Part shown: piece after piece, positions 27,037 through 37,131 of the stretch | How positions within the stretch are numbered: position 1 is the first letter of the stretch | Layout of the letters: the number at the start of each line of letters is the position of its first letter | DNA from: a virus | IMG/VR virus record: IMGVR_UViG_3300033148_007624 | Location: 1 to 41,002 of that record | DNA length: 41,002 bases | Direction: 5' to 3' (one strand) | Notes under the pieces: model-generated | What the model saw: the letters and a program-made list of their open reading frames with translations, nothing else | Told to the model about the DNA's origin: nothing | Databases searched by the model: none | Made by a program: the position numbers and the translations under genes

Positions 27037-27060
27037 GGGGGTTACTGTCCCCCTTGTTAT
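27037..27060 (+). terminator. GC hairpin before the epimerase gene
   Basis: GGGGG (27037-27041) pairs with CCCCC (27049-27053) around a 7-base loop, followed by TTGTTAT. It is a short, weak terminator or leader structure at the end of the tail operon and before the sugar-modification pair. Confidence 0.4.
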
Positions 27061-27071
27061 GGAGACCGAAC

Positions 27072-28067
27072 ATGAGAATTCTTGTTACCGGCGGTGCCGG
27101 TTTTATAGGCACGCACCTATGCCGAAGGCTGATAAAAGACGGTCATGATCTCGCGATTGTCGATAATTTATTTGAGCGCAAGTGGGAAAAAAGAGAAAAC
27201 CTGCGCACTCTATTCGAGATCGCCGATTTACGATTTTATCAAAAAGATATTCGCGATTACGGCGGATTATTATCCGTGATTCACAGGTTTTCACCCGAGT
27301 GTGTGATTCATCTCGCCGCGCTTGCCGGTGTTCGCCGGTCATTCTCCGTCCCCGAACAATATACGGACGTAAATGTCACCGGAACCGCCCATATCCTCGA
27401 ACTTGCACGTGCAGGCCCCGATATCAAGCGCTTCGTTTTCGCTTCCTCAAGTTCGGTTTACGGCACGTCTGTCCGACTCCCGATGTCGGAATCAACGCAT
27501 GTTGTCGGTGCTTTATCGACATACGCGGCGACAAAAAAGGCCGGCGAAGATCTCTGTTACGTCTACTCGCAATTTTTCACAACCGTGTGCCTGCGATTTT
27601 TCACCGTCTACGGACCCGGCCAACGCTACGGCATGGCGATTGATCGCTTTTTCCGCCGTGCAATCAACGGCTGGGAAATCGAGATCTACGGAGATCCCCG
27701 CTCAACTCGCGATTACACATATATCGATGATATTGTCGACGGCATAACCGCATCGATCACGGCAGAAATGCCGAGCCGATTCAATGCGATTAATCTCGGT
27801 TCCGGTCGGGAGGTATCGCTTGCCGAATTGGTAGAGATGATAGGCGATATTTGTGGTCGCAAGTTGGATGTCCGTTGCATCGAGGCCCAACCGGGTGATG
27901 CGGGTAGAACGCTGGCCGATTTTGCGAAGGCGCGAAAAATCTTGGGATATGAACCGAAGACGGAAATAACCCGGGGATTGAAATGTATGTATGAGCGCAT
28001 AAAATTCGATAACCCGACCTCACGGGGTTTGACAAGAGAGGGAGCTTTACCGGTCGGCGATCGATGA
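27072..28067 (+). CDS. NAD-dependent nucleotide-sugar epimerase/dehydratase
   Basis: A 331-residue short-chain dehydrogenase of the extended (GalE/CapI) type that interconverts nucleotide sugars such as UDP-sugars in the cytoplasm. Seen: the NAD-binding TGGAGFIG (6-13), VIHLAALAGVRRS (78-90), the catalytic Ser strand FVFASSSSVYG and the YxxxK pair Y151/K155 in YAATKKAGE. LRFFTVYGPGQRYGMAIDRF is close to UDP-glucuronate 4-epimerase-like members, but substrate cannot be fixed from sequence. ATG 27072 is used; the upstream in-frame TTG is in a hairpin. It likely supplies sugars for the virion or host surface together with the transferases at 9339-13159. Confidence 0.85.
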   Translation: MRILVTGGAGFIGTHLCRRLIKDGHDLAIVDNLFERKWEKRENLRTLFEIADLRFYQKDIRDYGGLLSVIHRFSPECVIHLAALAGVRRSFSVPEQYTDVNVTGTAHILELARAGPDIKRFVFASSSSVYGTSVRLPMSESTHVVGALSTYAATKKAGEDLCYVYSQFFTTVCLRFFTVYGPGQRYGMAIDRFFRRAINGWEIEIYGDPRSTRDYTYIDDIVDGITASITAEMPSRFNAINLGSGREVSLAELVEMIGDICGRKLDVRCIEAQPGDAGRTLADFAKARKILGYEPKTEITRGLKCMYERIKFDNPTSRGLTREGALPVGDR

Positions 28068-28118
28068 GACCTCCCGTGGTGGGTTCTTCTCCCTGACCCA
28101 CAACCTGATCGCCGACCG
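28051..28118 (+). other. Long inverted repeat spanning the epimerase stop
   Basis: CGGTCGGCGATC (28051-28062) is perfectly complementary to GATCGCCGACCG (28107-28118). Inside lies a second stem GTGGGT (28079-28084) with ACCCAC (28096-28101). The left arm encodes the last residues of the epimerase. No U-run follows, so it is not a classical terminator; it may be an RNA processing or stability element or the scar of an inserted gene cassette. Confidence 0.6.
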
Positions 28119-28140
28119 ATAAAGAAAACATTACCTGAGG

Positions 28141-29130
28141 ATGCCGAAAATGCCGCGACCATATCAACCAACATGGATCAGAGGAAAACAATTACCGGGA
28201 ATACCGGGAAAAGATTATCAGCGTGATTGCGCCGACCGCTATGAAGAGATTAAAAAGGCGATAAGTTCGCTCGGATATACACGCCGCTTTACCGTGTTCG
28301 ACCTCGGAACCAACATGGGTTATTTCATGCTCCGCATATCCGAGGATTTCAACGCCTTTGTTGTCGGCGCGGACAAACAAAAACGCCTCAGGGATATTCT
28401 GAAACAAAACAAAAATCACAATGTCGCCTGGCTCCAGTTGCACTTATCCGCCGATCAATTATTTAAACTGTCGCAATGTGAAGTATTTGATATTGGCCTG
28501 GTGTTGGCCGTTGCACACCATTATGATAATCCGATTCGCGCGATCTCGGGAATGATACGGCTTTGCCGTAACCTTTTGATCGAAATCCCGATCGACGACC
28601 CGAACGCGAAGAACCCGGAGGGGCACAAAGACGTGTATAAATACGTCGATAACCGGGCCGTGCGTCTAGCGGAATTTCGATCCCACACGGGCGGCCGGCG
28701 CATTCTGTATCATCTCGACAACGGTCCGCGCGCCGAATTGATACAGCCGACGATGGATGCCGACATCCGTGGGGTCGATTGCAATGTAAAAGTGATCTTA
28801 TCGCCGCAAGCGGCCAAGTGCGTAATCGCCCGTCCCCAAAAGCCCGAAATGCGCGATTTCATACCCGGGATGAACCTGTGGAACATGCGACTGCTTAATG
28901 TCGGATATCCGGCGCTCGATCACCTGACAAAATTATATCTCAGAGCTATCGAGCCGGATGACCATGACGATGCGATGCCCTGGAATTACATTTTCGATGG
29001 ACGTCTTCATCGGATTGACGACGGGTTTAAAAGCGGCAAGAAAAGAGGCGCTCATCGGGGAAAGTTCGTTTGGAGAACCGGGAAATGGGACAAAAAGAGC
29101 TATGGGAGGCGAAATGAAATTTATACCTGA
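28141..29130 (+). CDS. SAM-dependent methyltransferase-like protein (329 aa)
   Basis: The class I methyltransferase core is at residues 45-150: FTVFDLGTNMGYFMLRIS (motif I), FVVGADKQKRLRDIL (acidic strand end) and VFDIGLVLAVAHHYDNPIRAISGMIRLCRNLLIEIPI. The second half is unassigned, with basic residues at the end. The likely acceptor is a sugar or small metabolite, by association with the epimerase in front. The start ATG 28141 follows CTGAGG; an ATG at 28150 is an alternative. Confidence 0.7.
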   Translation: MPKMPRPYQPTWIRGKQLPGIPGKDYQRDCADRYEEIKKAISSLGYTRRFTVFDLGTNMGYFMLRISEDFNAFVVGADKQKRLRDILKQNKNHNVAWLQLHLSADQLFKLSQCEVFDIGLVLAVAHHYDNPIRAISGMIRLCRNLLIEIPIDDPNAKNPEGHKDVYKYVDNRAVRLAEFRSHTGGRRILYHLDNGPRAELIQPTMDADIRGVDCNVKVILSPQAAKCVIARPQKPEMRDFIPGMNLWNMRLLNVGYPALDHLTKLYLRAIEPDDHDDAMPWNYIFDGRLHRIDDGFKSGKKRGAHRGKFVWRTGKWDKKSYGRRNEIYT

Positions 29131-31897: not shown

Positions 31898-32086
31898 ATG
31901 ACTCTGAAGGAATTTATCGACCGGAGCGGCCTCAAGGGTCGCTTCATCGCACAGCGGCTCGGAATCAGCCGCTGCTACCTGTCTTTGATCAAAAACGGGC
32001 ACAGGCAGCCGTCTGCCGAACTCGCCCGTGCAATCCAAAACTTCGCCCGCGTTCGCGGGTACAACATCGACATCGGGGGTGACTGA
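31898..32086 (+). CDS. Small Cro/XRE-type DNA-binding protein (62 aa)
   Basis: GRFIAQRLGISRCYLSLIKNGHRQPSAELARAIQNFA is a helix-turn-helix of the XRE/Cro type covering most of the protein. It has a strong GGGGG-containing site and starts the early operon; TGATG overlap couples it to the ERF gene. It may autoregulate the leader, but no operator is proven. Confidence 0.7.
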   Translation: MTLKEFIDRSGLKGRFIAQRLGISRCYLSLIKNGHRQPSAELARAIQNFARVRGYNIDIGGD

Positions 32087-32850
32087 TGGCGCAAGAATCT
32101 AAGTGCCCGGCCGTGTACCCGGCCATTATATCCGTGATGGCGGATCTTGGAAAAGTCGGAATTTCCAAGGACCACAAGAATCAGATGCAGGGATATCGGT
32201 TTCGCGGAATCGACGACGTGTTGAATACGCTGAATCCGATTCTCGTGAAACACAAACTCTGCATCATCCCGCGATACAAAACGCGGGAAATACGTGAATA
32301 CAAATCAAAAAGCGGTGGAGATCTCTTCAACGTCGCGATCGAGGCTGAGTTTGATTTTGTGTCGGCTGTAGACGGATCGACACACACAGCTCGTCTTTTC
32401 GGCGAGGGGATGGATTCGTCCGACAAGGCCACCAACAAGGCCGAATCCGCCGCATTCAAGTACCTGTGTTTTCAGACCTTCTGTATCCCTACCGATGAAA
32501 TCCGGGATACGGATGCCGACAACGAGACACCGGAAACCGTCGGGCGGAAGAACCGGGAACCTGCAAAACCCCGCAAGACGAACGGCGTGACGGAAGATCA
32601 AAAGCGTTCTCTGGCGGAGATGGCAAAATCTGATTGTTCCGTTGTCGCTAATTACGTTAAGACGCTGGACGTTTCGCGTTTGAATAAAAGCGACGTCGAT
32701 AAAATCCTGAAACATGCCCGGGAAGAAATCCGGCGTTGGAAAATAGAACAAACACGCAAAGTAATTTCGCAAGCGGGCATAACCTTGGGCCCGGCAGGTA
32801 CGAAAGATGACACCACCGAAGGATTAACCGCCGATGACATCCCGTTCTAA
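32086..32850 (+). CDS. erf: ERF family single-strand annealing recombinase
   Basis: Residues 8-150 carry the ERF signature: VYPAIISVMADLGKVGISKDHKNQMQGYRFRGIDDVLNTLNPILVKHKLCIIPR, EFDFVSAVDGSTHTARLFGEGMDSSDKATNKAESAAFKYLCFQTFCIPT. Such proteins anneal complementary single strands in phage recombination and replication. The variable tail ends with DDIPF, the same tip as the phage SSB at 35659, which in SSBs recruits partner proteins. It overlaps both neighbours. Confidence 0.88.
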   Translation: MAQESKCPAVYPAIISVMADLGKVGISKDHKNQMQGYRFRGIDDVLNTLNPILVKHKLCIIPRYKTREIREYKSKSGGDLFNVAIEAEFDFVSAVDGSTHTARLFGEGMDSSDKATNKAESAAFKYLCFQTFCIPTDEIRDTDADNETPETVGRKNREPAKPRKTNGVTEDQKRSLAEMAKSDCSVVANYVKTLDVSRLNKSDVDKILKHAREEIRRWKIEQTRKVISQAGITLGPAGTKDDTTEGLTADDIPF

Positions 32851-33148: not shown

Positions 33149-33691
33149 ATGGGAAACCTGGTTAAGATGAAAAATCTTGCTCTGTACGAGGTATCGGATC
33201 AGTTGATCGAGATCCAGAACGAACTGATAGAAAACGGCGGCGAACTAACCGAAGAAATCGAAGAAAGATTGACAAGGCTCGAAATGAAGTTTCGAGATAA
33301 GGCGGTCGGGATTTGTAAGGTTATCCGGTCAATGTCCGAAATGGCCTCTGCCATAAAGACGGAAGAGAATAGGCTGAAGAATCTCAGGCAGGCGCGCGAA
33401 AGATGTGTTGGGGGCCTGCGCGAATACCTGCGAAAGGAAATGTCGCGCCTGCGCATGAAAAAACTGGATACCGATTTGTTTCGCCTGTCGCGGCGTAAAA
33501 ACCCGGTCAAGGCGGAGCTCATCGATGAAGAAGCCGCGCTTGATGATTTTTTTATTGTGAAACGAACATTCAATTCCACGAAGGCGATGAAGCATTTGAA
33601 GGCCATAGGTCAATTGCCGGAAGAACCCGGTGATGAAACCGTTATTTTCGGTGTGAAATTGTCACGCGGGGAATCGTTGCAGATCAAATAG
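33149..33691 (+). CDS. Siphovirus Gp157-like protein
   Basis: A 180-residue protein of the Gp157 family: an N-terminal acidic coiled coil (LYEVSDQLIEIQNELIENGGELTEEIEERLTRLE), a central helix with RLKNLRQARERCVGGLREYLRKEM, and the C-terminal beta part FRLSRRKNPVKAELIDEEA...IFGVKLSRGESLQIK. It is usually found beside ERF-like and SSB genes, as here; in some phages it is linked to host restriction/immunity or recombination. Confidence 0.8.
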   Translation: MGNLVKMKNLALYEVSDQLIEIQNELIENGGELTEEIEERLTRLEMKFRDKAVGICKVIRSMSEMASAIKTEENRLKNLRQARERCVGGLREYLRKEMSRLRMKKLDTDLFRLSRRKNPVKAELIDEEAALDDFFIVKRTFNSTKAMKHLKAIGQLPEEPGDETVIFGVKLSRGESLQIK

Positions 33692-33701
33692 GGAGGAAAC
33701 A

Positions 33702-34232
33702 ATGGGAGAAAAAACTTTTGAAACATTGGATGAAATCGCCGATTACTCAATGGAAAAGTCAGGGAATATCGCCGGTGCAATGGTTGTGATGCAGGACGTT
33801 ATTTATAGTGCCGACGATCAATTAAGCTTGAAAATTTCAGATGCGCTCGTCAAGAGAGCCTGCTATGCAAGCTTGCACAAATCGATCAGGCGCAAGCGCG
33901 AAAAGATATTGTCGGCGAATCGGCAATATACGGGGACGGCCAAGCCCAGGCAGCTTCCCGACAGAAACGAGGAAGATAACGGACTGGATTTGTTGGCCGA
34001 CAGCATCATTTACGAATATCGGCTGGTGAACGGTAAAAAACTTGGTGACGCCATGTATCACGATGTCCGGGCCCAGTTGTCCGTCTATCACAGGACGTTG
34101 AGGGGCTGCGAGAAGAAAATGAAGTTTTTCGGTGAGATCACTAAACGCATGGAAGAGTATCGGCAAAAGAGGGTGCGCGAAGTCTTATCAGCGGAAGAAT
34201 TGGCATTGATCCAGGTAAAGGCCGGGATTTGA
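33702..34232 (+). CDS. Hypothetical protein upstream of repeat array 1 (176 aa)
   Basis: A soluble helical protein with a GGGAGG site. The segment SDALVKRACYASLHKSIRRKREKIL and the C-terminus (MKFFGEITKRMEEYRQKRVREVLSAEELALIQVKAGI) give little family information. Its stop codon TGA is inside the first partial repeat of array 1 (GGATTTGAGCCG at 34225-34236), so gene and array abut without any spacer. A functional link to the array system is possible but unproven. Confidence 0.6.
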   Translation: MGEKTFETLDEIADYSMEKSGNIAGAMVVMQDVIYSADDQLSLKISDALVKRACYASLHKSIRRKREKILSANRQYTGTAKPRQLPDRNEEDNGLDLLADSIIYEYRLVNGKKLGDAMYHDVRAQLSVYHRTLRGCEKKMKFFGEITKRMEEYRQKRVREVLSAEELALIQVKAGI

Positions 34233-34512
34233 GCCGCGTATCTAGTGTTACCCGTGGTGTTTGTGCCGTAAGATTTGGGCCGCCACCCTACTGTTACCCG
34301 CCAAGTCGGTGCCATAAGATTTGAGCCGAGGCCGCGGTGTTACCCGCAATGGTCATGCCGTAAGATTTGAGCCGTATCCCCGATGTTAACCGTATTGAAA
34401 ATGCCGCAAAATTTGGGCCGAAGGAAGGATGTTACCCAAGTCCTGTTTGCCGCAAGATTTGGGCCGATCCGGTGTTGTTAACCATAACCAAAGTGCCGTG
34501 ACACGATTTAAA
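34225..34512 (+). repeat. TIGR-like guide array 1 (six 46-bp units with paired 9-nt variable segments)
   Basis: After a partial repeat that includes the preceding stop codon, six units repeat at exactly 46 bp: 9 variable, TGTTACCCG-like 9-mer (starts 34246, 34292, 34338, 34384, 34430, 34476), 9 variable, and a 19-mer of consensus TGCCGTAAGATTTGGGCCG. Variable pairs: cgtatctag/tggtgtttg, ccaccctac/ccaagtcgg, aggccgcgg/caatggtca, tatccccga/tattgaaaa, aaggaagga/agtcctgtt, atccggtgt/taaccaaag. The last 19-mer is degenerate (34494 on). This is the layout of TIGR arrays (edge repeat, spacer A, loop repeat, spacer B), whose transcripts are cut to 36-nt guide RNAs. Direction of transcription is not proven. 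It is not a CRISPR array: spacers are far too short. Confidence 0.85.
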
Positions 34513-34524
34513 AGGGAGATGAAA

Positions 34525-35244
34525 ATGAGCGATCTAATCGATGCAACCCGAAACGAAACCGCAAAAACCCTGACCCTGATCCGTGAAAAATATCGCCGGA
34601 TTAAAGATTACGAAAAGGTCGAGATCGGATTGCTGCAGCGTCAATATGCCATCATCAGGAGAGCAACCGATTGTGGCAAGGATGATGCGCCGAAAATTCA
34701 CAAGGCGTTATGGCAGGGAAAAGAGGTCGAGAAAGGGGAAAAACTGCAATTCTTATGCGAACATTTCGAAGCCGCAAGGTTGAATTTCATCGAGCACAAA
34801 AAACCACACATACGGGAAATTGAAAAACTGATCAAAAAACTTCCGGTTTGGGAATGGGCTAAATCGGTGCGTGGGTGCGGTCCCTATATTTTGGGTCAAT
34901 TATTGGCCGAGACCGGGAACCTGTCAGATTATGCGAATCCCGCGAAGGTCTGGAAGCGAATGGGATTGGCCGTGATAAACGGCGAGCGTCAGCGAAAGTG
35001 CCTAGATAGGGAAAAGGCGATAATCCACGGATACTGCCCCAGGCGTAGATCAATCATGTGGAATCTCGGTAAATGTTTGATCCGATCGAACGATCAGCAT
35101 TTCAGGAGAATTTACGATGAAAGAAAAGAATACGAGGAGGGGAAAGCACCTGAAAAATCAAAAGCCGCGTGGGATATTCGGGCACAACGATACATGGAAA
35201 AGGCATTTTTAAGGGAACTGTGGGAGGAATGGAATCGGGTTTGA
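34525..35244 (+). CDS. tasA: TasA-like Nop-domain protein (IS110 C-terminal-like), TIGR-associated
   Basis: 239 residues. Residues 101-185 match the C-terminal Transposase_20 part of IS110 transposases: KKLPVWEWAKSVRGCGPYILGQLLAETGNLSDYANPAKVWKRMGLAVING, then CPRRRSIMWNLGKCLIRSN. No DEDD catalytic domain precedes it; residues 1-100 are a charged, mainly helical region. IS110 C-terminal domains are related to the Nop domain of box C/D snoRNPs and of Tas proteins, where it holds the guide RNA. Placement between two arrays of paired 9-nt spacers strongly supports TasA (a Tas protein with neither HNH nor RuvC nuclease), so binding, not cutting, of target DNA is expected unless a partner acts. ATG 34525 has site AGGGAG; the longer frame enters array 1. 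Its stop lies in the first repeat of array 2. Confidence 0.85.
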   Translation: MSDLIDATRNETAKTLTLIREKYRRIKDYEKVEIGLLQRQYAIIRRATDCGKDDAPKIHKALWQGKEVEKGEKLQFLCEHFEAARLNFIEHKKPHIREIEKLIKKLPVWEWAKSVRGCGPYILGQLLAETGNLSDYANPAKVWKRMGLAVINGERQRKCLDREKAIIHGYCPRRRSIMWNLGKCLIRSNDQHFRRIYDERKEYEEGKAPEKSKAAWDIRAQRYMEKAFLRELWEEWNRV

Positions 35245-35612
35245 GCCACGGCAATGTTGTTACCCGAGCGGAATTTGCCGTAAGATTGGGGCCGCCTAAA
35301 AAATGTTATCCGAAACTCCATTGCCACAAGATTTAAGCCGCTTCTCCCATGTTACCCGTTTGGAGGTTGTCGCAAGATTTGAGCCGAAGGCGCCCTGTTA
35401 CCCGCAGCCAGGTTGCCATAAGATTTGGGCCGTGCCCTTGGTGTTACCCGAGCAAAGGCTGCCACAAGATTTAGGCCGTATTGTAACTGTTACCAGCCTA
35501 AACGATGCCGTAAGATTTGGGCCGGATGCTGATTGTTACCCGTCAGAAGGATGCCACAAAATTTGGGCCGATCACCCGATGTTATCCGAGATGGCAGTGC
35601 CCACTAAAAAGA
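35235..35612 (+). repeat. TIGR-like guide array 2 (eight 46-bp units with paired 9-nt variable segments)
   Basis: Same unit as array 1, again at exact 46-bp steps: the 9-mer TGTTACCCG starts at 35258, 35304, 35350, 35396, 35442, 35488, 35534 and 35580. Variable pairs: cggcaatgt/agcggaatt, cctaaaaaa/aaactccat, cttctccca/tttggaggt, aaggcgccc/cagccaggt, tgcccttgg/agcaaaggc, tattgtaac/cctaaacga, gatgctgat/tcagaagga, atcacccga/agatggcag. The 19-mer varies mostly at positions 5-6 and 14-15 (TGCCACAAGATTTAAGCCG, TGTCGCAAGATTTGAGCCG). The final 19-mer is broken off as TGCCCAC. No variable pair is shared with array 1. The 414 bases 35245-35658 contain this array and then the SSB leader; no gene is credible in them. 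Confidence 0.85.
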
Positions 35613-35658: not shown

Positions 35659-36030
35659 ATGAACAGGGTATTTTTAGTTGGACGATTGGGTCAAGATCCT
35701 ATTCTGCGTTATACAGCCAATAATAAGGCGGTATGCCATTTTTCGGTTGCCACGGATGATACCTGGGGCGGTGAAAAAGAAACCGAATGGCATGATATTG
35801 TTACATGGGGAAGACAAGCCGAAACCTGCGACAAATATCTCGAAAAGGGATATCTTGTTTCTGTTGTCGGACGAATTAGAACCCGCACCTATGAAGACCG
35901 TGACGGCAACCGTCGATTTCTGAAGGAAATAATCGCATCGGAAGTTAAATTTATTCAAAAACCGTATAAGGGCGACGATCAACATGATTATGATTCCGGT
36001 GGGATTTCCGATGAAGATATTCCCTTTTGA
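35659..36030 (+). CDS. ssb: Single-stranded DNA-binding protein
   Basis: A 123-residue OB-fold SSB: MNRVFLVGRLGQDPILRYTANNKAVCHFSVATDD, WHDIVTWGRQAETCDKYLEKGYLVSVVGRIRTRTYEDRDGNRRFLKEIIASEVKFI, and the C-terminal interaction tip DEDIPF. It coats single strands during replication and recombination; the tip recruits partners. ATG has an AAGGAA site. Confidence 0.93.
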   Translation: MNRVFLVGRLGQDPILRYTANNKAVCHFSVATDDTWGGEKETEWHDIVTWGRQAETCDKYLEKGYLVSVVGRIRTRTYEDRDGNRRFLKEIIASEVKFIQKPYKGDDQHDYDSGGISDEDIPF

Positions 36031-36423: not shown

Positions 36424-37131
36424 ATGACGTACTTGCGGATCAGGAATTGGGAAAAGTTCCAGCATTACAAAGACAGGCGGCCACCGTGGATTAAACTTTA
36501 TGTTGATGTTCTTGATGACTACAAATTCAATTCTTTGACGGATGCACAAAAAGGTCATTTGGTGATGCTTTGGTGCCTTGCCGCCCGACTGAACAACAAA
36601 ATTCCCAACGATACCGGATGGGTTTCAGCGAGGGCCGGCGTCAAAGAAAACATTGATCTCGGTTTGTTTGTCAAGCTCGGATTCCTCGAACCTCGGAACG
36701 GAGAGGAATATTCCGCCGGAAATGAGATGTCCGGGCCTGACGAATATGGCGGCCCGAACGAATGCGCCGAGAAGAAAGACACATCGGGCGAGAAACAAAA
36801 CATTGTAAACAGACCCGGTCGCAACCCGATACACAAGGATGAAGAACCGTGCACCGGATACAAAGAAGGTCCGCTACACACAAAAAACAAGTTATGTAGC
36901 AGGCCTCGCGAAAGTGCGCTACATACAAAAACAGATCTCTGTAGCAGACCTTGCGGAGGTGCGCTACACACAGAAAGTGAAACCTGTACCTCAGAGACAG
37001 AGACAGAGACAGAGACAGAGACAGAGACAGAGACAGAGGAGAACGCGCGCGCGCGCGAGAGCAAGAATTTTTCAAACCCGATCGCTAAACGATCGGGCGT
37101 TTCTCGGCGGAAAAAACGGATCCGGACATAG
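36424..37131 (+). CDS. Replication initiator-like protein, N-terminal part
   Basis: Residues 1-85 (YLRIRNWEKFQHYKDRRPPWIKLYVDVLDDYKFNSLTDAQKGHLVMLWCLAARLNNKIPNDTGWV) form the winged-helix start common to phage replisome organiser/DnaD-like initiators. A long linker has four tandem 15-residue units around LHTKxxLCSRP (45-bp DNA repeats) and then a Thr-Glu dipeptide run. The frame ends with RRKKRIRT and a stop, while a C-terminal domain follows in the next frame from about 37110. The gene is most likely longer and broken by one base in the A6 tract (37111-37116) or the GC repeat before it. Confidence 0.72.
   Translation: MTYLRIRNWEKFQHYKDRRPPWIKLYVDVLDDYKFNSLTDAQKGHLVMLWCLAARLNNKIPNDTGWVSARAGVKENIDLGLFVKLGFLEPRNGEEYSAGNEMSGPDEYGGPNECAEKKDTSGEKQNIVNRPGRNPIHKDEEPCTGYKEGPLHTKNKLCSRPRESALHTKTDLCSRPCGGALHTESETCTSETETETETETETETEENARARESKNFSNPIAKRSGVSRRKKRIRT
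36828..37062 (+). repeat. 45-bp direct repeats and simple-sequence tract inside the initiator gene
   Basis: GCTACA-type blocks recur at 36828 (degenerate), 36873, 36918 and 36963, exactly 45 bp apart; two of them are paired with TGTAGC (36895, 36940), giving potential hairpins. After this comes a hexanucleotide run (CAGAGA units, about 36990-37036) and an alternating GC tract (37044-37056). Repeats within an initiator gene are typical of phage replication origins (iterons). Confidence 0.6.

What the first reader, a model, noticed from the sequence alone, without database searches (positions are those of the whole stretch)
34225..35612. TIGR-Tas-like RNA-guided locus: nuclease-less Nop/IS110-C-terminal protein between two arrays of paired 9-nt spacers
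Seen directly: fourteen units at an exact 46-bp step, each with two conserved blocks (19 and 9 nt) and two 9-nt segments that differ in every unit; two arrays flank a gene whose protein resembles only the C-terminal Transposase_20 domain of IS110. Established: TIGR arrays (published 2025) encode 36-nt tigRNAs with two short spacers, and Tas proteins contain a Nop domain related to that of IS110 and box C/D snoRNPs; they occur in phages. Inference: this is a TasA-type system. Two arrays around a single effector and a lone Nop protein with no HNH/RuvC domain would suit target binding or silencing, for example against competing phages or host genes. With 27 bases from spacer to spacer, a 36-nt RNA would keep about 9 bases of the 19-mer.
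Basis: partly seen in the sequence, partly recalled or inferred. Interest (0 to 1): 0.95.

Follow-up and report, generated by a model that had tools for sequence, protein, structure and literature searches.

The report
Phage TIGR-TasA locus with compact arrays
This phage carries a real, short RNA-guided DNA-binding system of the recently described TIGR-Tas kind, with two guide arrays packed unusually tightly around its protein and a second, uncharacterised gene that almost always travels with that protein in related phages.

Summary
In detail: fourteen 46-nt units (6+8) flank a 239-aa gene. Each unit has a 19-nt repeat, a 9-nt spacer, a 9-nt repeat and a 9-nt spacer. The protein's best matches among solved structures are TasR and TasH, by sequence (E=1.2e-21 and 3.3e-8) and by predicted fold (pLDDT 93; the ten matches with E<0.001 are all TasR/TasH). 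Both repeats begin UG and end CC(G/A), the box D/box C layout of TIGR arrays. So this is a nuclease-less TasA system, a published kind.

First, this TasA sits in a well-supported clade whose other members carry stem-loop arrays (346 units on the coding strand against 16 on the other, 59 loci). The window alone has a strict 46-nt, linkerless, dual-repeat-like array with almost no stem. Second, the gene just upstream (33702-34232) belongs to a family found beside tasA in 54 of 59 distinct loci, with divergent relatives in mycobacteriophages. It has no known domain or fold and is probably an unreported partner. No spacer pair matches the phage itself. Targets, RNA length and biological role remain untested.

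The parts
33702..34232 (+). Gene X, 176 aa, all-helical protein of unknown function; family conserved directly beside tasA
   Evidence: Iterated HMM finds homologues in nearly every related locus; no Pfam/NCBIfam family shared by members; AF2 pLDDT 84.5; no PDB fold match
34226..34498 (+). TIGR array 1: six 46-nt units; the 5'-truncated edge repeat contains the stop codon of gene X (TGA 34230-34232); ends in truncated edge TGCCG
34525..35244 (+). tasA: 239-aa nuclease-less Nop-domain protein (helical dimerisation arm plus RNA-binding C-terminal domain)
35239..35601 (+). TIGR array 2: eight 46-nt units; the 5'-truncated edge repeat contains the stop codon of tasA (TGA 35242-35244); ends in truncated edge TGCC
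34264..34282 (+). Example edge repeat TGCCGTAAGATTTGGGCCG (box D UG at 5' end, box C CCG at 3' end)
34292..34300 (+). Example loop repeat TGTTACCCG (UG ... CCG)
32086..32850 (+). Context: ERF single-strand annealing protein in the same co-directional run of genes
   Evidence: Pfam PF04404 3.5e-21; PHROG
33149..33691 (+). Context: Gp157 / Mu Gam-like protein, immediately upstream of gene X
   Evidence: Pfam PF05565 1.6e-28
35659..36030 (+). Context: single-strand DNA-binding protein, immediately downstream of array 2
   Evidence: Pfam PF00436 5.9e-34

Best explanation
A phage TIGR-TasA system. Gene X, array 1, tasA and array 2 lie head to tail on one strand, inside a recombination/single-strand-DNA gene cluster, and are probably one transcript. 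The arrays are cut once per 46-nt unit inside the 19-nt edge repeat, giving up to 14 short guide RNAs, each with two 9-nt guides held between box C and box D. A TasA dimer binds the guide through its Nop domain. One guide pairs with one strand and the other with the opposite strand of an adjacent 18-bp DNA target, so the target is opened and bent but not cut. The likely effect is to block transcription or replication of foreign DNA (a rival phage, plasmid or host locus), since no spacer pair matches the phage's own genome. Gene X is most likely a second component, acting in guide maturation or in what the bound complex does. Shown: array anatomy, Tas fold and homology, clade placement, X-tasA linkage, no self-target. 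Inferred: transcription, processing, target binding, outcome, role of X. The stated confidence is for the TIGR-TasA identity; blocking foreign DNA as the outcome is nearer 0.5.
For: Sequence: profile of the protein family hits 9MTY (TasR, 1.2e-21) and TasH (3.3e-8) and nothing else in the PDB at E<0.01; 9MTY is identified as TasR in PMC12045711. Fold: AF2 model pLDDT 93; all ten PDB matches with E<0.001 are TasR/TasH, then IS110 recombinases, with Nop5 weaker. Array: two alternating repeats, both UG...CCG, two 9-nt spacers, truncated edges at both array ends, as described for TIGR arrays (PMC12045711). Relatives: 54 of 59 distinct loci carry stem-loop units with the same CCN-9-UG....CCN-9-UG core, 346 on the coding strand against 16 on the other. 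Partner: gene X homologue in 54 of 59 distinct loci; 10 of 10 loci found by X carry tasA next to it.
Against: No expression data; RNA length and processing site are unknown. No target found: best self-match 15/18, the usual top score of shuffled guides, and nothing above 15/18 in 1.18 Mb of related loci. The edge repeat (19 nt) is longer than the 8-12 nt published for dual-repeat arrays, and the stem expected for stem-loop arrays is nearly absent. Gene X could be a hitchhiker in a conserved phage gene order.
Confidence: 0.85

Rival explanations
1. A dual-repeat-clade TIGR-TasA exactly as published, with 36-nt tigRNAs.
For: Strict periodicity, two repeats, no long stem in the window.
Against: The tree puts this TasA in a 57-member clade (support 99/99) apart from dual-repeat members (Microcystis phage L015, Salicola TasH, Acidianus virus), and nearly all clade members scanned carry stem-loop units. 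The edge repeat is 19 nt, not 8-12, and the unit is 46 nt, not about 36.
Confidence: 0.2
2. A decayed IS110 element whose C-terminal fragment survives, with the arrays as unrelated tandem repeats.
For: The only credible Pfam match is Transposase_20; PHROGs calls the family 'transposase'.
Against: Sequence and fold matches favour Tas over IS110; no DEDD nuclease domain, but a complete, confidently modelled 239-aa protein; dozens of intact relatives sit beside guide-like units.
Confidence: 0.02
3. Guides act on the phage's own genome (regulation or genome organisation).
For: The system lies among ERF, Gam-like and SSB genes; a nuclease-less TasA could regulate.
Against: Best self-match is 15/18, the commonest top score of shuffled guides; exact 9-mers occur at chance (9 against 9.0 +/- 2.9).
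Confidence: 0.1
4. Gene X is a passenger: phage gene order, not function, keeps it next to tasA.
For: No known domain; flanking recombination genes are also phage core genes; an N-terminal-half match occurs weakly in other proteins of 18 genomes.
Against: The pair persists across very divergent phages (X identity 10-28%) including actinophages, with arrays between or around them; full-length X was found only in the one of 289 alphaproteobacterial genomes that has tasA.
Confidence: 0.25

Closest known systems
TIGR-TasA with stem-loop arrays (Faure et al. 2025, PMC12045711; Peromyscus gut contig)
   Same: Solo Nop-domain protein; two spacers of about 9 nt between box C and box D; sub-arrays around the gene; the window's nearest protein relatives have this array type
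   Different: The window's units are a strict 46 nt with no linker; the two hairpin arms are abutted into one 19-nt repeat that barely pairs (2-7 bp against long stems in relatives)
Dual-repeat TIGR arrays of TasA/TasR/TasH (Faure et al. 2025)
   Same: Alternating edge and loop repeats, 9-nt spacers, truncated edges at array ends, matching box motifs in both repeats
   Different: Edge repeat 19 nt rather than 8-12; unit 46 nt; protein belongs to the other clade; no clear terminator after the array
TasParB-TasA operons (Faure et al. 2025)
   Same: A second gene operonic with tasA, with an array between or around the genes
   Different: Gene X shows no ParB match by Pfam, NCBIfam, PDB sequence or fold search
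IS110/IS621 bridge-RNA recombinases
   Same: Homologous Nop / Transposase_20 domain; guide RNA with two target-recognising segments
   Different: No DEDD catalytic domain, no transposon ends sought or seen, arrays instead of one bridge RNA; weaker fold match

Membership tests
TIGR-Tas | Nop-domain (Tas) protein | tested here: met
   Profile and fold matches to TasR and TasH lead all others
TIGR-Tas | Adjacent array of units with two about-9-nt spacers | tested here: met
   14 units, all spacers 9 nt
TIGR-Tas | Box D (UG) and box C (CCA-like) flanking each spacer, matching between the two repeats | tested here: met
   Edge and loop repeats both start UG and end mostly CCG
TIGR-Tas | Array transcribed and processed to about 36-nt RNAs bound by Tas | not testable with these tools
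   No RNA data; unit length here is 46 nt
TIGR-Tas | Tandem-spacer binding of both strands of a DNA target | not testable with these tools
   No target identified
TasA subtype | No HNH or RuvC nuclease domain | tested here: met
   239 aa; helical arm followed directly by the Nop domain in the model; no nuclease Pfam match
Dual-repeat TIGR array | Two distinct alternating repeats of 8-12 nt, fixed unit length | tested here: inconclusive
   Fixed unit length and two repeats met; the edge repeat is 19 nt
Dual-repeat TIGR array | Tas protein in the dual-repeat clade | tested here: not met
   Groups with stem-loop-array relatives, 99/99; only a few dual-repeat proteins were available for the tree
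Stem-loop TIGR array | Each unit enclosed by a palindromic stem | tested here: not met
   Arms pair over 2-7 bp only; relatives have long stems
TasParB-TasA operon | ParB-like partner gene | tested here: not met
   No ParB match for gene X, and no ParB_N match anywhere in the record
IS110 transposase | N-terminal DEDD RuvC-like nuclease | tested here: not met
   N-terminus is a helical arm

The most novel reading that the evidence does not exclude
TasA of this large phage clade is not a one-protein system: gene X is an obligate, undescribed second component, carried together with TasA by phages of Alphaproteobacteria and Actinobacteria. The window's array is an evolutionary intermediate in which separate stem-loop guides have fused into a linkerless dual-repeat array.
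Probability: 0.5. Interest if true: 0.78.

Novelty: new variant of a known kind. Interest (0 to 1): 0.62.

Why it matters
What nuclease-less TasA does is an open question in the founding paper, which describes it as lacking clear protein associations apart from an occasional ParB-like gene. A conserved partner found in dozens of phages, including cultivable mycobacteriophages (Thor gp73-gp72), makes that question directly testable. The compact array in a stem-loop clade also blurs the published split between the two array types and suggests how one could turn into the other.

Tried and rejected
Two degenerate DNA patterns of the window's repeats over IMG/VR: the first gave no match; the second gave three single matches on contigs with no tas in the stretch fetched, probably chance, so no second copy of this exact array type was found. 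Self-targets and targets in related loci: not above shuffled guides. Database-wide 18-mer spacer searches were not run, because about one exact match per 18-mer is expected by chance in the largest collections. An open frame of about 107 codons through array 2 is not unusual for shuffled spacers (p=0.24), so I do not claim array 2 is coding. Gene X: Pfam, NCBIfam, PHROGs, PDB sequence, PDB fold and viral fold searches gave no function; the viral fold search's two borderline matches (E about 2e-3) are an uncharacterised mycobacteriophage Omega protein and an unnamed one. ParB_N, tyrosine integrase and serine resolvase: none in the record, which weakens an integration-helper role for this phage, though the record may be incomplete. 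Rfam and tRNA scans were empty. No convincing promoter or terminator at the arrays: counts equal shuffles.

Full report
Observation. The two arrays and the gene between them are real. Reading at a 46-nt step gives six units upstream and eight downstream of the gene, each made of TGCCGYAAGATTTGRGCCG, a 9-nt spacer, TGTTACCCG and a second 9-nt spacer, with all 28 spacers different. Lag-46 identity is 0.66 and 0.61 over the two arrays; apart from a separate 45-bp repeat at 36849, no other lag from 25 to 74 exceeds 0.47 in any 100-nt stretch nearby. Each array begins with the second half of the 19-mer and ends with its first few bases. The opening half-repeat contains the stop codon of the preceding gene in both cases: TGA at 34230-34232 and TGA at 35242-35244.

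Identity of the protein. The 239-aa product matches the C-terminal IS110 domain only weakly in Pfam (6.7e-4, below cut-off). Against solved structures the single sequence finds 9MTY at 1.6e-10, and a 15-sequence profile finds 9MTY at 1.2e-21 and TasH at 3.3e-8, with nothing else at E<0.01. 9MTY is the TasR structure of the TIGR-Tas paper (PMC12045711). The AlphaFold2 model has mean pLDDT 93.1, and its ten PDB matches with E<0.001 are all TasR or TasH chains, followed by IS110 recombinases and, much weaker, Nop5. There is no nuclease domain. This is TasA.

Identity of the array. The TIGR-Tas paper describes edge and loop repeats that begin UG (box D) and end CCA-like (box C), with the motifs matching between the two repeats, 9-nt spacers, truncated edge repeats at the array ends, and arrays upstream and/or downstream of tas (PMC12045711). 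All of these are met here. The paper's edge repeats are 8-12 nt and its tigRNAs 36 nt; here the edge repeat is 19 nt and the unit 46 nt.

Relatives. Searches of IMG/VR, phage records and GTDB genomes gave 59 distinct tas loci (the window included), the bacterial carriers found in GTDB being Alphaproteobacteria. A scan for CCN-9-UG....CCN-9-UG units enclosed by a complementary stem found 346 on the tas strand and 16 on the other strand; 54 of 59 loci had at least one. Units are typically 50-90 nt apart with strong stems. These are the stem-loop arrays of the paper. In a maximum-likelihood tree the window's TasA lies inside a 57-member clade with support 99/99, apart from the dual-repeat members I could include (Microcystis phage L015, Salicola phage TasH, Acidianus virus). 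The window's exact position inside that clade is unresolved.

What is unusual about the window's array. Among the loci tested for periodicity only the window has a strict lock-step array at 46 nt. Its arms pair over only 2-7 bp (-1.1 to -9.0 kcal/mol), against stable stems in relatives (whole units -13 to -38 kcal/mol). The simplest reading is that the 3' arm of one unit and the 5' arm of the next have been abutted into one 19-nt repeat with no linker, giving a dual-repeat-like array in a stem-loop clade. The paper says dual-repeat Tas proteins form a distinct clade and mentions possible intermediates. Direction of change is inference.

Gene X. The gene directly upstream (33702-34232) had no significant match in Pfam or PHROGs, but an iterated profile search found a homologue next to tas in almost every locus: 54 of 59 distinct loci counting the window. 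Of the five without it, two lack upstream sequence, one is the dual-repeat Microcystis phage, and two lack it at this sensitivity. In one locus (L064) the detected copy lies downstream instead. In reverse, ten loci found with X alone all carry tas immediately downstream, though these are close relatives. In 289 alphaproteobacterial genomes, a full-length X occurs only in the one genome that has this tas; 18 others show weak partial matches to its N-terminal half. In actinophages the gene upstream of tas scores 17-24 bits against the X model while a control scores 0.1, and a profile comparison gives probability 92.9%. X is all-helical (pLDDT 84.5, pTM 0.42) with no PDB fold match and no ParB similarity. 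The paper's main text reports no clear association of TasA with other proteins apart from the ParB-like gene; its supplement could not be read, so 'unreported' is provisional.

Mechanism. By homology with TasR and TasH (PMC12045711), a TasA dimer would bind one guide RNA whose two spacers pair with opposite strands of an 18-bp target. I derived the site as spacerA + rc(spacerB) with a 0-2 bp gap and tested it in both orders. The phage's own genome gives a best match of 15 of 18, the commonest top score of shuffled guides, and 1.18 Mb of related loci give nothing above 15 (gap 0 only). The targets are therefore probably foreign, but unknown. Without a nuclease the likely effect is occlusion or bending of target DNA. 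The position between a Gam-like gene and SSB, downstream of ERF, suggests expression with the recombination genes. No integrase or resolvase was detected, which argues mildly against a role in integration.

Verdict. What is added is a compact array form inside a stem-loop clade and a conserved partner gene, which together make this a new variant of a known kind.

Noticed in passing
L007:6413-6621; also L004:2510-2610, L005:9711-10031, L010:9679-9860: Stem-loop guide units lie inside the tas reading frame itself, between the conserved N-terminal helix and the Nop domain, so the same DNA appears to encode both protein and guide RNA. In L007 the internal units are spaced 57, 57 and 63 nt, all multiples of 3. 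No mention was found in the main text of PMC12045711.
   Followed up: partly
L002-L089, tas ORFs: In 47 of 59 distinct loci at least one unit lies within the stop-to-stop frame of tas, often just upstream of the conserved part and close to the end of gene X. Where the true start codon is, and hence whether this part is translated, is unresolved in most.
   Followed up: partly
L029:5877-5967: Three stem-loop units spaced 45 and 45 nt in frame with tas, a second compact case in a different lineage.
   Followed up: partly
L121 (Mycobacterium phage Thor), L098, L099, L122, L123: Genes annotated 'transposase', 'DNA binding' or 'hypothetical' in about 80 myco- and gordoniaphages are Tas relatives. 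The five loci examined have an X-like gene upstream; the Morrissey array has stem-loop units with CG in place of UG as box D.
   Followed up: partly
L015:5512-5840: Microcystis phage Mvi-JY20 carries what looks like a canonical dual-repeat TIGR array of about 36-nt units next to a tas gene annotated as hypothetical protein.
   Followed up: no
36865-37038: A replication-protein-like ORF (36424-37131) contains a 45-bp repeat (2.5 copies) followed by about eight copies of CAGAGA; the units lack the TIGR layout.
   Followed up: no
27054-29130: A GDP-mannose dehydratase-like epimerase and a methyltransferase/glycosyltransferase-like gene in the phage, probable auxiliary or surface-modifying genes.
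   Followed up: no
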